From Dehalococcoidia bacterium (GTDB lineage: Bacteria > Chloroflexota > Dehalococcoidia > Lucifugimonadales > Lucifugimonadaceae), in NCBI GenBank assembly GCA_012959765.1, contig DUCO01000007.1, forward strand, positions 1,336 to 65,335: 64,000 bases of DNA, given 5' to 3'. Of this stretch, positions 13,892-56,854 are shown in pieces; positions within the stretch are counted from its first letter, which is position 1, and each line of letters opens with the position of its first letter. The notes under the pieces are model-generated. The model was not told where the DNA came from. It was given only the letters and a program-made list of their open reading frames with translations, and searched no databases. The position numbers were made by a program, and so were the translations under genes.

Positions 13892-15127
13892 CTATTCGGG
13901 AAGGCCCTGCAGTTCACGCCTGAACAAACTCAGTGCGCCCATCGCAGCGCGCTGCCTATCGGGTCCGCCTCTGCCAGCAGATCGCACATGGCGAGTTCGT
14001 TCGCCATTTGGACCCGAAACCACGATGTGTGTTTCGCCTTTGCCCAGATTCACGGCTCGCTGATCGCCCTCTTCCGCACCGTGAACGGCAATACCGTAGG
14101 TTGCTCCAGACGATTTCCTGATCGCTCGTGCCAGTGCGGCTGCTCGTTCGACAGCATCTGCGAACGGAGGAGTTTCACCGCCGTCTCTCGCAACTTTTTC
14201 GAGCGCATCGTTCGTGTTCACAATAGAACTCTGCAGCAATGCTGAATCGGCAGCTTTCTGGATAGCCGATGCCACGGCACCTCCGCTGAGATCTTCGCAA
14301 GTAGCCACAGTTGCGTTGTTGCTGGATAAGAGTTCGCCAACCACCGACTCGATCGTTTTAGCATCGACAGCGAATATGTTGTCGCCAAGAAGTTTTCGAA
14401 CTTCAACGTCAACCACGTCGATCAGCTTGTCGGCTTCTTCGATGCTCTCAGCGAGAGCCGCAATTCGCACGTCGACCTGCCCCGGGTGAGCCAGAACGCC
14501 AACAGTAGGGTTCTTCGATTCGGCGATCAGGTGGCCAATACGATCGTCGACCGCGCTTTCTCCAATATCGGCGACTTTAAGAATGCGGTAGTGAATCATC
14601 TGAGTAAGACCGTACTTCTCACGCAGGTAGGGGATTACTTCGTTTTCTACGAGCCATTTCATCTCGAACGGCACGCCAGGAAGGCTAATCGTCACACCAC
14701 GGTCGGTCTCGACAATAAACGCCGGCGCTGTTCCGTTCGGGTTTTTCACCACGATGGCACCGCTTGGAATCTGGGCCTGGCGTTCGTTGTTCTTGGTAAG
14801 GATGAAACCACGCTTCTGGAACCGCTCACGAAGCTCGACGAGCGAATCGGGATCGGTAACAACTTCGCGCCCGGTAACTTTGGCGATTGCTTCACGGGTT
14901 AGATCGTCCTGAGTCGGGCCAATGCCACCACCTGTGATCACGACGTCAGAGCGGTCGAGCGCACGATCAAGGGTTTCGACCATACGGTCCATATTGTCGC
15001 CAACCGTTGTTTTGTAGAACAGGTTCACGCCGCTTTCGGCCAGGCGTTGTGCGATCCACGAGGCGTTCGTGTCGACGATCTGGCCGAGCAGTAGTTCCGA
15101 GCCGATGGAGACGATTTCTGCATTCAT
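13892..15127 (-). CDS. cinA: CinA family protein (MoCF domain plus divergent nicotinamide-nucleotide amidase domain)
   Basis: A 411-residue CinA. The N-terminal MoCF/COG1058 domain is well conserved: IVSIGSELLLGQIVDTNASWIAQRL, VVITGGGIGPTQDDLTREA and ISLPGVPFEMKWL, predicted to have ADP-ribose pyrophosphatase-type activity. The C-terminal PncC-like amidase domain is diverged: the usual AESCTGG appears as TCEDLSGG, so the Ser of ESC is replaced by Asp and deamidase activity may be lost. Later blocks such as GIAVHGAEEG are recognisable. Classical CinA is damage- or competence-inducible. The divergent promoter region upstream carries two SOS-box-like palindromes, whose centre is about 230 bases from this start. 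Confidence 0.88.
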   Translation of the reverse strand: MNAEIVSIGSELLLGQIVDTNASWIAQRLAESGVNLFYKTTVGDNMDRMVETLDRALDRSDVVITGGGIGPTQDDLTREAIAKVTGREVVTDPDSLVELRERFQKRGFILTKNNERQAQIPSGAIVVKNPNGTAPAFIVETDRGVTISLPGVPFEMKWLVENEVIPYLREKYGLTQMIHYRILKVADIGESAVDDRIGHLIAESKNPTVGVLAHPGQVDVRIAALAESIEEADKLIDVVDVEVRKLLGDNIFAVDAKTIESVVGELLSSNNATVATCEDLSGGAVASAIQKAADSALLQSSIVNTNDALEKVARDGGETPPFADAVERAAALARAIRKSSGATYGIAVHGAEEGDQRAVNLGKGETHIVVSGPNGERTRHVRSAGRGGPDRQRAAMGALSLFRRELQGLPE

Positions 15128-15327: not shown

Positions 15328-15369
15328 TTGACTTATTAGAACAGATGTTCAATACTAGAACAATAGTTC
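15328..15369 (+). promoter_or_regulatory. Promoter with two SOS-box-like palindromes
   Basis: TTGACT at 15328-15333 and AATACT at 15351-15356 form a -35/-10 pair with a 17-base spacer. GAACAGATGTTC (15339-15350) lies in the spacer and GAACAATAGTTC (15358-15369) just downstream of the -10. Extended contexts are ATTAGAACAGATGTTC and CTAGAACAATAGTTCTAAT. GAAC-N4-GTTC is the LexA-binding form known from Firmicutes and Actinobacteria, and the recA upstream region here has ATTAGCACAAGTGTTCTAAT. A repressor on these sites would block polymerase. The start codon of the downstream gene is 57 bases after the second palindrome. The rest of the 15128-15425 gap shows nothing else I can name. Confidence 0.75.
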
Positions 15370-15425
15370 TAATAAGTAATGGATAAGACAAGCGCCAAGT
15401 GAGCCGTAGTTCCTAAGAGGTCAAG

Positions 15426-16256
15426 ATGAGTTCGATCGCCACCGCAACTGTTACGCCGGAAAAACGTGTGGATTCTGGGAGTTCAGGTCGGGCGGCGTCC
15501 GGGTTTTACGGAGCGACTCAAAATGGCAGCCAGCCGGTTCGAGGACTTCGTGAAGTTACCAGTGGCTACGCACAAAAAACTGTTGGCGAATCCGCCGGTA
15601 CAGGTAGCTCAAACAATGGGTTAAATGCTGCGTTGGCGCAGATTGTTCAAAGTGTCACCAATCGTAATAAAGCGACTGGCGGTTCGAAGATCATCACGGT
15701 TGATCTGGCTGAGGGTGAGAGTGTGCAGGAGTTTTCGACTCGACTGCGGATGTTGCTGATGTTCATGAACCGCGACGAAGGTTCTGTTTCGGCGACGGTT
15801 TCTCCTTCTTTTCAAAACGATACCTACCCGGCGATGCTTGCTCTTGTGAAGACTTTTGAGAGCTCCGGTACGAGCGGCGATTGGCGTCCGGACGGGCCGC
15901 GAGCTATTCGAATGGGCAAGGCAAGACACCTGTTTGTGAGTGTCGATATGCCGGTTGCAGATCGGAGCGCTTCACCAGACACGCTTATCGAGATTGTTGC
16001 TGCGCACAGGATCAGTTCTGAGTGGTACGACCTGCGTGTGAGTCCACGGGCTCCCTCTACGGGAATGACCACTGTGTTGTTTGGGGTTCCTGCTGCCTCT
16101 GGTGGTGGCGGTGCGGATTCTTTGCACGCCAGTTCGGTGTTCACCAATTCGGTGTTCAAACGTGAGCGCGCTAAGAATCTTTCGGGCAGACCCGGTGGGA
16201 TTCACTTTTCACGTCTTTCATCTATGGCGAATTGGTCGGCTACTACGGCTGTTTGA
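15426..16256 (+). CDS. Unrecognised protein behind tandem SOS-type palindromes
   Basis: A 276-residue protein I do not recognise. The first 70 residues are rich in Ser, Gly, Thr and Ala and probably disordered. Residues about 85-215 look folded: KIITVDLAEGESVQEFSTRLRMLLMFMNRDEG, then DTLIEIVAAHRISSEWYDLRV and MTTVLFGVPA. The C-terminus is basic and Ser-rich. There is no signal peptide, membrane segment or nuclease motif. TAAGAGG lies about 5 bases before the ATG. The Cys-cluster HTH gene follows after 54 bases. By context it may belong to the DNA-damage response, for instance as a division inhibitor or mutasome accessory protein, but that is only inference. Confidence 0.75.
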   Translation: MSSIATATVTPEKRVDSGSSGRAASGFYGATQNGSQPVRGLREVTSGYAQKTVGESAGTGSSNNGLNAALAQIVQSVTNRNKATGGSKIITVDLAEGESVQEFSTRLRMLLMFMNRDEGSVSATVSPSFQNDTYPAMLALVKTFESSGTSGDWRPDGPRAIRMGKARHLFVSVDMPVADRSASPDTLIEIVAAHRISSEWYDLRVSPRAPSTGMTTVLFGVPAASGGGGADSLHASSVFTNSVFKRERAKNLSGRPGGIHFSRLSSMANWSATTAV

Positions 16257-16310: not shown

Positions 16311-16745
16311 ATGGTGATGACTCTTGGTCCTGTAACTCCTGTAACTCTTGGTCCTGTTCGTTCCGATACGTTGCCGGAGAACACGCGTTACAAGGACGAT
16401 GGTTGCGATGCTTCGCTGACGTGTTTGTCGTGTCCGCTAACGTTGTGCAAGTACGACGATCCAGGCTGGTTGCAGCGTGAGAGTCGTCGAATTCGTGACG
16501 ATGAAATCTTTCGATTGCGGCAGAAACGAGTTCCTGTATCGGAGATTTCAAATCGCTTCGGTATTAGCACTAGAACTGTGCACCGAATCGTGCATCGCGG
16601 TGGGGCGGCACCTGTGCCTGTGAATGAAGTGGATGATGGTCCGCTTATTTCGCTGAGTGAGTTATCAGGACGTTCATTGTTCCGAGAACGAACACCGTTC
16701 CCCGAGTTGGTAGTTAACGGATCTTCAACGTTCGGAACGAACTAA
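16311..16745 (+). CDS. Helix-turn-helix protein with four-cysteine N-terminal motif
   Basis: A 144-residue protein. Residues about 32-46 hold a C-x5-C-x2-C-x4-C cluster (CDASLTCLSCPLTLC), followed by KYDDPGWLQRESRRIRDDEIFRLRQ and a resolvase/sigma-type helix-turn-helix (VPVSEISNRFGISTRTVHRIVHRG). The four Cys could bind zinc or an Fe-S cluster; the HTH should bind DNA. CGGAG lies about 10 bases before the ATG at 16311. The gene follows the 276-residue protein by 54 bases, so both are probably expressed from the palindrome-bearing promoter. A 14-base direct repeat at 16320-16333 and 16344-16357 duplicates TLGPV near the N-terminus. I recall similar small proteins in Chloroflexota but no assigned function. 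Confidence 0.8.
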   Translation: MVMTLGPVTPVTLGPVRSDTLPENTRYKDDGCDASLTCLSCPLTLCKYDDPGWLQRESRRIRDDEIFRLRQKRVPVSEISNRFGISTRTVHRIVHRGGAAPVPVNEVDDGPLISLSELSGRSLFRERTPFPELVVNGSSTFGTN

Positions 16746-16796: not shown

Positions 16797-18068
16797 ATGA
16801 CATCCGGTTCGAATCTGCCTGAGCGCCCACAACTACGTCCTGTCGAAGTAAGTCGCATCTCTCGTGAGGGAAGCGACTTCTTCTTGTTAAAAGACCCTCG
16901 GCAGTTGAGTGATCAGCCGCTTTTGGTTCCGGTACCCCTCGCGCCTTATTTACAGAACATCGACGGCACAAACACAGTCGAGGAGATCGTTGAAGCTGCA
17001 TTGAGTGCCGGCGGGCAACCTGTTCCTCCAGAGATCATCGATGATTTGTTGAATCGGCTCGACGATATGTTGCTGCTTGAAAACGGCGCGTTCGTTGGCG
17101 AAATGCAACGACGCCTTGCCGAATATCGAGATGCTCCTTCACGTAAACCGGCACTAGCTGAACAGGCGTATCCGGAAAACGTCGACGACCTGCGGGGTTA
17201 TCTCGACGGATTCGCATTTCCGTACATGAATGCGGGAGGCGAACTTCGAGACTCGGTAGCTGGCGATCTGAAGGCTGTCATTTCACCGCACATCGACTTC
17301 GAACGAGGCGGTGATTCGTATGGAATGATCTGGGAGCAGGTTCGGGGGCAACTACAAGATGTCGAGTTGTTTGTAGTGTTCGGGACAGACCACAACGGTG
17401 ATGGTCCACGCCTAACACTCACAAATCAGAACTACGAAACTCCGTTGGGTGTTCTCGAAACAGACATGGGATTGGTAGACGAGCTGGCGCGAATTCTCGC
17501 AACCGACGACGGCATTGACGATCACCCGTTCGTCGATGAAATGAATCATGTCAACGAACATTCCATAGAACTCGCAACTGTGTGGTTGCATCGAATGCTC
17601 GGCAGGAGCAATGCGAAAATGCTGCCGGTACTCTGTGGGTCGATGGGGCGATCACTGATCGATGGCAGCCCTGATCTGGACGATCACCCGCAAATTAACG
17701 CAGCGATCCAGGTTCTCAAGAGGGTAGCCAGTGAACGTCGAACGGTGTTCATTGCAGCAGCAGATCTCGCTCACGTTGGCCCCGCGTTTGGCGATCCAGA
17801 GCTAATACCCACCGAGTCTAAGCATAGAAAACGTGTTCAGAATGCTGACGAGAATCTGCTCGAGGCGATCACAAGTGGTGACCGGAAACAATTTTTTGAC
17901 CTGATCAAGTCTGAGGCTGACCAGAACAAAATCTGCGGACTCGCACCGATTTATATGACGCTCTGGGCATCGGATGCGACGAGTGGAAACTGGAACGGAT
18001 ACCAGCAGTGCCAAGCAGACGAAGCTAACACATCGTTCGTATCGATAGCAGGCGCAGCACTTTATTAG
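16797..18068 (+). CDS. amrB: AmmeMemoRadiSam system protein B (MEMO family) with N-terminal PqqD-like extension
   Basis: A 423-residue protein. From about residue 155 it is a MEMO1-family domain: AVISPHIDFERGGDSYG with the first metal-site His, VVFGTDHNGDGPRLTLT, MNHVNEHSIELATVWL with the second His pair, VLCGSM and AAADLAHVGPAFGD. MEMO proteins share the fold of extradiol dioxygenases. In prokaryotes they co-occur with AMMECR1 and radical SAM partners (the AmmeMemoRadiSam system), with unclear function. The first 120 residues (TNTVEEIVEAALSAGG and MLLLENGAFV) resemble the winged-helix PqqD-like extension common in bacterial versions. The partner genes are not adjacent. It follows the HTH gene by 51 bases and might be co-transcribed. 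Confidence 0.88.
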   Translation: MTSGSNLPERPQLRPVEVSRISREGSDFFLLKDPRQLSDQPLLVPVPLAPYLQNIDGTNTVEEIVEAALSAGGQPVPPEIIDDLLNRLDDMLLLENGAFVGEMQRRLAEYRDAPSRKPALAEQAYPENVDDLRGYLDGFAFPYMNAGGELRDSVAGDLKAVISPHIDFERGGDSYGMIWEQVRGQLQDVELFVVFGTDHNGDGPRLTLTNQNYETPLGVLETDMGLVDELARILATDDGIDDHPFVDEMNHVNEHSIELATVWLHRMLGRSNAKMLPVLCGSMGRSLIDGSPDLDDHPQINAAIQVLKRVASERRTVFIAAADLAHVGPAFGDPELIPTESKHRKRVQNADENLLEAITSGDRKQFFDLIKSEADQNKICGLAPIYMTLWASDATSGNWNGYQQCQADEANTSFVSIAGAALY

Positions 18069-55683: not shown

Positions 55684-56766
55684 CTAGTTAGACGCTGGCG
55701 CACCGGCGGTTTCGCCGGCACCTTCTGGTGGGGCAGAGCCATCTTCGCTGGCACGAATAGCGGCCTCTATCTGATCTCGAATATCGGTGTTCGTCTTAAG
55801 GAACTTACGAGAAGCCTCGCGTCCCTGACCAAGACGAGTCTCACCATACGAGTAGAATGATCCGCTCTTCTTCACGATGCCGTCTTCAACACCGAGATCG
55901 AGTAAACTGCCCTCTTTGCTGATGCCTGAATCGAAAAGAATTTCAATTTCGGCTTTTCGGAAAGGCGGTGCCACCTTGTTCTTCACGACCCTGGCTCGTA
56001 TGCGGTTACCAATAATGTCCTGTCCAACCTTGACAGCCTCGACCCTTCGCAAATCGATACGCACCGAGCTGTAGAACTTCAAAGCACGTCCACCCGGAGT
56101 CACTTCAGGGCTACCGAACACCACACCAACTTTTTCTCGAAGTTGGTTAATGAAAATACAAACAGTGTCAGTCTTGTGAATGATCCCGGTGAGTTTGCGC
56201 AACGCCTGCGACATGATCCGAGCCTGCAGACCGATCTGCATATCGCCCATGTTGCCTTCGAGCTCAGCCGATGGCACTAGTGCCGCAACGCTGTCGATGA
56301 CGATGATGTCTAGCGCACCACTGCGGATCAGGTACTCGGTAATCTCTAGAGCCTGCTCAGCAGAGTCTGGCTGTGAAATCAAAAGCTTGTCTACATCCAC
56401 ACCAAGTACGCGGGCATACGTCGGGTCCATAGCGTGTTCAACGTCAATGAACGCTGCCTGTCCACCAGCCGCCTGAGCCTCGGCAACTGCCGACATAGCA
56501 AGCGTGGTTTTACCGGCAGACTCTGAACCGAAGATCTCGATGATTCGGCCTCGTGGAAGCCCACCGACGCCGAGTGCGATATCAAGGGCGATTGAACCCG
56601 TTGGGACAGATTTTATACTCGTGTCGAGATTGGACTGGCCGAGCCGCATAACGGCACCACGACCAAACGACTTCTCGATCTGTGCAAGAGCTAACTCAAG
56701 ACTCTTGTCTCGGTCGCTGCTCGCCCCGTTAACTGAAACCTTGGGCATTGCTTTCTTAACAGCCAA
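55684..56766 (-). CDS. recA: Recombinase RecA
   Basis: About 360 residues. Start taken as TTG 56766 (AGAAGAG about 5 bases upstream); ATG 56748 is an equally good alternative. The longer frame to 56829 would enter the promoter palindrome region. Walker A is [15 protein letters not shown], Walker [12 protein letters not shown]2 loop [30 protein letters not shown] and the DNA-binding [10 protein letters not shown] region. RecA forms filaments on single-stranded DNA, drives homologous recombination and triggers LexA self-cleavage. The promoter carries an SOS-type palindrome at 56835-56854. Confidence 0.97.
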
Positions 56767-56834
56767 CGTCGCTCTTCTTTCTCTGCTATCCAGAGGCCGG
56801 ACATACGGTTCAAATCGACCGCAATGCAACGCAG

Positions 56835-56854
56835 ATTAGCACAAGTGTTCTAAT
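56835..56854 (-). promoter_or_regulatory. SOS-box-like palindrome in the recA promoter
   Basis: ATTAGCACAAGTGTTCTAAT reads on the minus strand as ATTAGAACACTTGTGCTAAT. This matches the palindrome TAGAAC-N4-GTTCTA at 15358-15369 except for one base (GTGC for GTTC). On the minus strand, TTGCGG precedes it and TAATCT follows with a 16-base spacer, so the palindrome sits between -35 and -10. That is the same arrangement as at 15328-15356. Confidence 0.72.

What the first reader, a model, noticed from the sequence alone, without database searches (positions are those of the whole stretch)
15328..15369. Tandem SOS-type palindromes inside a promoter, matching the recA box in the same window
Seen: GAACAGATGTTC at 15339-15350 and GAACAATAGTTC at 15358-15369, the first between TTGACT and AATACT, the second just after. 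The recA upstream region carries ATTAGCACAAGTGTTCTAAT, one base from the same consensus and likewise between -35 and -10. Known: GAAC-N4-GTTC is the LexA site form in Firmicutes and Actinobacteria. Inferred: this genome uses ATTAGAAC-N4-GTTCTAAT, and the gene at 15426 is a tightly repressed SOS gene, with two sites where recA has one.
Basis: partly seen in the sequence, partly recalled or inferred. Interest (0 to 1): 0.8.

Follow-up and report, generated by a model that had tools for sequence, protein, structure and literature searches.

The report
SOS-switched dead phage packaging motor
In this marine bacterium, two DNA-damage (SOS) type control sites sit in the promoter of a small operon whose first gene is a worn-down, probably inactive piece of a phage DNA-packaging motor that selection has kept, followed by a gene for a probable DNA-binding protein.

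Summary
In detail: two GAAC-N4-GTTC palindromes, 19 bp apart, lie at the stated coordinates in a TTGACT-17-AATACT promoter. In this genome alone the evidence is thin (extended motif, up to 3 mismatches: 6 sites, reversed control 6). Comparison makes it strong: 28 of 29 homologous loci with upstream DNA carry the tandem pair, against 0 of 336 control pieces.

The host belongs to the genus of Ca. Lucifugimonas marina (SAR202). The 276-aa product matches no Pfam, PHROG or NCBIfam model, but is homologous in sequence and predicted fold to the ATPase domain of phage large terminases. The Walker A Lys, the Walker B Asp and the nuclease domain are gone in 31 of 31 family members, yet dN/dS is about 0.17. 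A Cys-rich HTH protein follows in 25 of 25 named loci. The TerL-HTH pair also occurs in packaging modules of other Dehalococcoidia and in viral contigs; some modules have LexA-like boxes.

I read it as a phage packaging module reduced to a conserved two-gene SOS operon. LexA binding and induction are untested. Function is inferred: packaging interference or a second-tier SOS regulator.

The parts
15328..15333 (+). -35 element TTGACT
   Evidence: Sequence; TTGAC in the 16 bp before box 1 in 27 of 28 tandem loci
15335..15354 (+). LexA-type box 1 (core 15339-15350), in the promoter spacer
   Evidence: 3 mismatches to the extended motif, core exact; conserved
15351..15356 (+). -10 element AATACT, between the two box cores
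   Evidence: Sequence; -10-like sequence between the boxes in 24 of 28 tandem loci
15354..15373 (+). LexA-type box 2 (core 15358-15369)
   Evidence: 1 mismatch to the extended motif, core exact; conserved
15416..15420 (+). Ribosome-binding-like AGAGG
   Evidence: Sequence reading
15426..16256 (+). 276-aa pseudo-terminase (TerL ATPase domain without ATPase motifs or nuclease domain)
16311..16745 (+). 144-aa Cys-rich HTH protein, next gene of the presumed operon
   Evidence: HTH_23 3.8e-7; follows the first gene in 25 of 25 named loci; invariant C-x5-C-x2-C-x4-C
13892..15127 (-). cinA, divergent neighbour (context)
   Evidence: Pfam CinA domains; found in 28 of 30 homologous loci
16797..18068 (+). 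Memo-family gene downstream (context)
   Evidence: PF01875 1.4e-30; found in 19 of 30 homologous loci (flanks are short)
56835..56854 (.). Box of the same type upstream of recA (recA ORF 55684-56829 at most, minus strand)
   Evidence: 1 mismatch

Best explanation
A conserved SOS operon made out of a phage DNA-packaging module. LexA on two boxes, one between -35 and -10 and one just after -10, should keep the promoter shut; DNA damage (RecA-triggered LexA self-cleavage, established for LexA in general) should open it. The operon then makes (1) a terminase ATPase-domain protein that has lost the residues for ATP hydrolysis and the nuclease domain, so can act only by binding, and (2) a Cys-rich HTH protein that probably binds DNA. 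My commitment on use: the pseudo-motor is a decoy or poison for packaging motors at the time when SOS also wakes prophages (about 0.35); an equally likely use is given as the first rival. Shown by computation: operator conservation, gene order, TerL homology and predicted fold, motif loss, purifying selection. Inferred: LexA binding, induction, co-transcription, all protein function. The confidence below is for the identity (LexA-type-controlled, phage-derived pseudo-terminase operon), not for the use.
Against: No binding or expression data. Genus g11 keeps the gene, but 0 of 4 loci have an exact core within 150 bp and its fifth locus, L039, has one core and no tandem pair. Full-length TerL modules have a box-like site (up to 3 mismatches) in only 4 of 10 loci, two of these with a core mismatch and two at or inside the first listed ORF; several of the ten have little upstream DNA, so SOS control of the ancestor is not secure. 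Extended motif at 3 mismatches equals its control in the own genome. Walker B is not fully neutral everywhere: L031 and L035 keep an acidic residue at the Glu place. A decoy needs a cognate motor: the boxed TerL of the genus did not turn up in the searches with this family, and this genome has no match to that TerL, to PF04860 portal or to PF05065 capsid. The HTH gene is the wider-spread part.
Confidence: 0.7

Rival explanations
1. Second-tier SOS regulator: the HTH protein is the working part and switches other genes after damage; the pseudo-terminase is its partner or co-regulator.
For: HTH gene in 69 of 100 relatives against 46 of 100 for the pseudo-terminase; a box core before the HTH operon in 10 of 10 loci, 8 of them without a pseudo-terminase that my profile finds; stronger conservation (dN/dS 0.09); weak PHROG match to late transcriptional activators (3.9e-5).
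Against: No target sites known; the HTH matches are generic; it does not say why the pseudo-terminase is itself under purifying selection.
Confidence: 0.35
2. Part of a gene transfer agent or other packaging system that is still active and switched on by SOS.
For: Class-wide TerL relatives, usually one per genome in the listing; a weak GTA-family hit beside TerL (NF048001, 6e-4, below its cut-off); box-like sites before HTH-portal and TerS-TerL units in L243.
Against: No ATPase motifs and no nuclease domain; no PF04860 or PF05065 match in this genome (92% complete, other portal and capsid families not searched).
Confidence: 0.1
3. A decaying phage relic that only happens to keep its old promoter.
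For: Phage ancestry, loss of domains and motifs.
Against: dN/dS 0.11-0.26 over 52 pairs, open reading frames, conserved gene order and operator in the family.
Confidence: 0.07
4. The palindromes are not LexA sites: chance, or sites of another regulator.
For: Single-genome counts near control; binding untested.
Against: Conservation with recA, lexA and imuB-like sites of the same form. Chance is excluded in practice; another regulator is not.
Confidence: 0.05

Closest known systems
LexA-repressed SOS genes with more than one operator (recalled)
   Same: Palindromes of the GAAC-N4-GTTC type overlapping a sigma-70-type promoter; the same type at recA and, weaker, at lexA
   Different: The product is a phage-derived pseudo-motor, not a repair or division gene; binding untested here
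Phage large terminase (TerL), ATPase domain: HK97, T4 gp17, P74-26, Sf6 gp2
   Same: Homologous sequence and predicted fold
   Different: Walker A Lys, Walker B Asp and the nuclease domain are missing; chromosomal operon without portal or capsid
Uncultivated-phage and Dehalococcoidia packaging modules with TerL, HTH and portal genes
   Same: Same TerL family and same HTH family side by side
   Different: There TerL is full length with intact motifs and a portal gene is near
Gene transfer agents (recalled: host-kept phage packaging genes)
   Same: Phage packaging genes kept in the chromosome over long times
   Different: Here only a dead ATPase piece and an HTH gene remain
Packaging interference by phage satellites (recalled; they act on the helper's small terminase)
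   Same: Idea of a non-phage protein that derails packaging
   Different: Here the suspected agent is a dead TerL in the host genome, untested

Membership tests
LexA/SOS regulon | Operator of the host's box type overlapping the promoter | tested here: met
LexA/SOS regulon | Same box at recA and lexA | tested here: met
   recA 1 mismatch; lexA only 3 mismatches in the 18-base form
LexA/SOS regulon | LexA present | tested here: met
   TIGR00498 152.3 bits, cut-off 110.95
LexA/SOS regulon | LexA binds the site; damage induces the gene | not testable with these tools
   Needs bench work
Phage large terminase | Terminase ATPase fold | tested here: met
   Predicted model only; 14 best rows
Phage large terminase | Walker A with Lys | tested here: not met
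   0 of 31 members; 8 of 8 full-length ones have it
Phage large terminase | Walker B Asp-Glu | tested here: not met
   Asp in 0 of 31; an acidic residue at the Glu place in 2 of 31
Phage large terminase | RNaseH-like nuclease domain | tested here: not met
   Proteins of 194-276 aa end before it (L026 is cut at its start by the contig)
Gene transfer agent | Portal and capsid genes in the genome | tested here: inconclusive
   No PF04860 or PF05065 match in G000, but 92% complete and other families not searched
Known anti-phage defence systems | Match to a PADLOC model | tested here: inconclusive
   Pseudo-terminase none; HTH protein a 31-residue match to mad1 (8.7e-5) and a weak WYL hit (0.041)

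The most novel reading that the evidence does not exclude
SAR202 bacteria have turned a phage motor against phages: a catalytically dead terminase ATPase domain, placed under tandem LexA operators, is made just when damage wakes prophages and jams or titrates packaging motors, while its HTH partner reprograms late phage genes. As far as I know it would be the first host-encoded dominant-negative terminase (my one search on this found no paper with all its terms), evolved from a packaging module spread through the class.
Probability: 0.25. Interest if true: 0.85.

Novelty: new variant of a known kind. Interest (0 to 1): 0.62.

Why it matters
SAR202 bacteria are abundant in the deep ocean (recalled), and the listings of my searches show no paper devoted to LexA in this group (none opened). 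The locus is a clear, testable case of a phage motor stripped of catalysis and kept, apparently under SOS control. The series in the class (full TerL-HTH-portal module, ATPase remnant plus HTH, HTH alone) lets one follow such a domestication step by step. Ca. Lucifugimonas marina has a complete genome and is in culture (recalled), so induction can be measured.

Tried and rejected
Ordinary repair gene: no match to any family in Pfam, PHROGs or NCBIfam. Chance palindromes: rejected on comparison; single-genome counts alone would not have sufficed. The other two three-mismatch sites of the own genome: one lies inside an ORF, one between listed ORFs of no known link to repair (L109, L110). Prophage in the window: no PF04860 or PF05065 in the genome; neighbours are cinA, Memo and, by my reading, phoU- and pstB-like genes. 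Second LexA: the C7 hit lies in an HrcA-like ORF (my reading). Viral relatives: none for the pseudo-terminase alignment by the patterns used nor for the single full-length TerL; an alignment of four TerLs then gave 134, 80 kept. HTH protein in the phage records: none. Solved structures by sequence: none. Motif retention in viral TerLs is partly by construction (searched with Walker patterns), so I do not count it. In the tree the 30 pseudo-terminases used are split from 12 chromosomal and 18 viral TerLs with support 1.0 on a branch of 1.18; this fits one origin but long-branch attraction could help it. Two very divergent ORFs before the HTH gene (L144, 2.4e-6; L142, 4.8e-4 to my profile) may be further pseudo-terminases; L142 also matches NF052413, for whose name I found no paper. 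Foldseek against PDB never ran; I have the VIA second look and BFVD. The structure job for the HTH protein was still unfinished. 'TerS-like' and 'membrane protein' in the full-length module are labels by position and composition; NCBIfam gave no match for those two proteins of L052.

Literature: only search listings were seen; no paper was opened. Searches.

Odds for the main reading were not changed; the odds of the GTA and other-regulator rivals are stated here for the first time in a complete form.

Full report
1. What is there. Box 2 has one mismatch to ATTAGAACNNNNGTTCTAAT, box 1 three, the recA box one. The window is G000:C7:1336-65335 of a 2.63-Mb assembly, 92% complete. A genome of the same genus, G013, is a single contig of 3,094,136 bases, the length of CP046147.1, Candidatus Lucifugimonas marina JH1073, where the same locus lies. 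The host is therefore of that SAR202 genus.

2. Is it more than chance? In one genome, barely: the core occurs 96 times against 66 for the reversed pattern, the extended motif with up to three mismatches 6 against 6, with up to two 3 against 1. Over 19 genus genomes the two-mismatch sites sum to 65 against 12. Upstream of the gene, 30 homologous loci were taken and one dropped for want of upstream DNA; 28 of the other 29 have two boxes, 23 at 19 bp, 4 at 20 bp and 1 at 18 bp, against 0 of 336 control pieces. TTGAC precedes box 1 in 27 of 28 and a -10-like sequence lies between the boxes in 24 of 28; over 17 genus loci the operator has a mean majority-base frequency of 0.91, the outer flanks 0.44 and 0.46. 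This is a conserved operator-promoter.

3. Other sites. One LexA passes the curated lexA cut-off. Sites stand before recA, weakly before lexA, as a triple with the same spacing in this genome and in Ca. L. marina between an FtsZ-like and an MmcB-like gene, and in Ca. L. marina before an imuB-like polymerase (IMS 5.8e-10). uvr and dnaE2 were not looked at.

4. The gene product. The 276-aa protein has no match in Pfam, PHROGs or NCBIfam. Relatives are in 46 of 100 genomes, among them 18 of the 19 genus genomes, the own one included. The most distant hits are ORFs of 462-509 aa in other families of the order. One of these hits phage terminases: Bacillus phage vB_BboS-125 at 31.6% over 94% (6e-43), and more weakly Thermus, Meiothermus and Streptomyces phages. 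In reverse, the full-length protein finds this ORF (3.3e-11) and a TerL profile scores it 1.4e-14 among the ORFs given. The predicted structure (mean pLDDT 77.5; blocks from 71 to 220 at 84-97; residues 1-60 of low confidence) has large terminases or terminase complexes in its first 14 rows and in BFVD mostly terminases among the named matches, with some PhoH-like proteins.

5. It is a pseudo-motor. Eight full-length relatives were aligned (two of the ten loci, L050 and L056, were left out as broken); all have Lys in Walker A and Asp-Glu in Walker B. Of 31 distinct family members none has the Lys and none the Asp; the Glu place is acidic in two, L031 and L035. The family proteins, 194-276 aa, end before the nuclease domain. 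Selection is purifying: dN/dS median 0.164 (93 of 136 pairs with defined dS) and on named loci 0.169 (52 of 136 with dS under 1.5).

6. The partner. The next gene codes for a 144-aa protein with invariant C-x5-C-x2-C-x4-C and an HTH. It follows the first gene in 25 of 25 named loci and is found in 69 of 100 relatives. In 10 of 10 further loci at least one exact core lies within 150 bp upstream of its operon, against 1 of 213 control pieces; in genus g11, which has the pseudo-terminase, 0 of 4.

7. Where the pair comes from. In other families the same HTH gene stands after a full TerL and often before a portal gene (portal SPP1-type 1.3e-14). Four of the ten loci have a box-like site at up to three mismatches. 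In a 1.52-Mb single-contig genome of the same class, LexA-like boxes precede HTH-portal and TerS-TerL units (L243). The family profile matches 186 of 393 genomes of the class, the pseudo-terminases included; outside this family most listed matches lie in open frames of TerL size and most genomes have one (list cut). IMG/VR gave 134 relatives; of 80 kept, 77 have the portal gene and 15 the HTH gene, 7 within 2 kb of TerL. The simplest history is a phage packaging module that settled in the class and was pared down here to ATPase remnant plus HTH, and in some small-genome genera to HTH alone. The direction is inference.

8. A second case in the genus. Ca. L. marina and relatives carry another TerL, with intact Walker A by my reading, beside a portal gene (Phage_portal 1e-66). 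A box lies 215-272 bp from the match in six genomes, perfect in G013, G012, G004 and G017, one mismatch in G006 and G008. It matches in 8 of 19 genomes, some copies with stops or in pieces, and not in the window's genome. PF05065 capsid is found in 2 of 19. So LexA-boxed prophage-like remnants exist in the genus, which gives an SOS-timed packaging inhibitor a possible target, though of another TerL type.

9. Mechanism. With the ATP residues and nuclease gone but the fold kept, the protein can act only by binding. Packaging interference and partnership with an SOS-induced HTH regulator are about equally likely. The wider spread and stronger conservation of the HTH gene favours the second; phage origin and timing favour the first. 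Nothing here was tested at the bench.

10. Verdict. Observation confirmed; SOS reading supported by comparison but not by binding data; the gene behind the promoter is the surprise.

Noticed in passing
L044 1293-3306 (G000:C40:96292-98305) and L105 in Ca. L. marina: Three LexA-type boxes with the same spacing between an FtsZ-like gene (354 aa) and an MmcB-like gene: possibly an SOS-controlled FtsZ paralogue. Whether the genome has another FtsZ was not checked.
   Followed up: partly
L104 117-1825 and L111 17876-19120 (G013:C1, about 2658875-2661825): Perfect LexA box before a 70-aa Cys-rich ORF, a TerL and an HK97-type portal gene; TerL matches in 8 of 19 genus genomes; capsid-family hits only in G012 and G004.
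   Followed up: partly
L107 2197-2214 (G013:C1:2651195): One-mismatch LexA-type box in the 5' part of a sulfatase-like ORF; a like site at G012:C20:51470, whose neighbourhood was not read.
   Followed up: no
L142 2320-2838: 172-aa ORF under two LexA-type boxes before the HTH gene; matches NCBIfam NF052413 'terpene biosynthesis-related' at 2.3e-88 and weakly the pseudo-terminase profile; the family name may mislead.
   Followed up: partly
L052 1269-1487: 72-aa protein beside TerL weakly matches a GTA head formation family (NF048001, 6e-4, below its cut-off).
   Followed up: no
G012 C20:31915-32535 and C22:12943-13551: One genome carries two copies of the pseudo-terminase and HTH genes.
   Followed up: no
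L243 8634-13212: In a 1.52-Mb single-contig genome, convergent HTH-portal and TerS-TerL units each start with a LexA-like box; the portal reading frame is in two pieces.
   Followed up: partly
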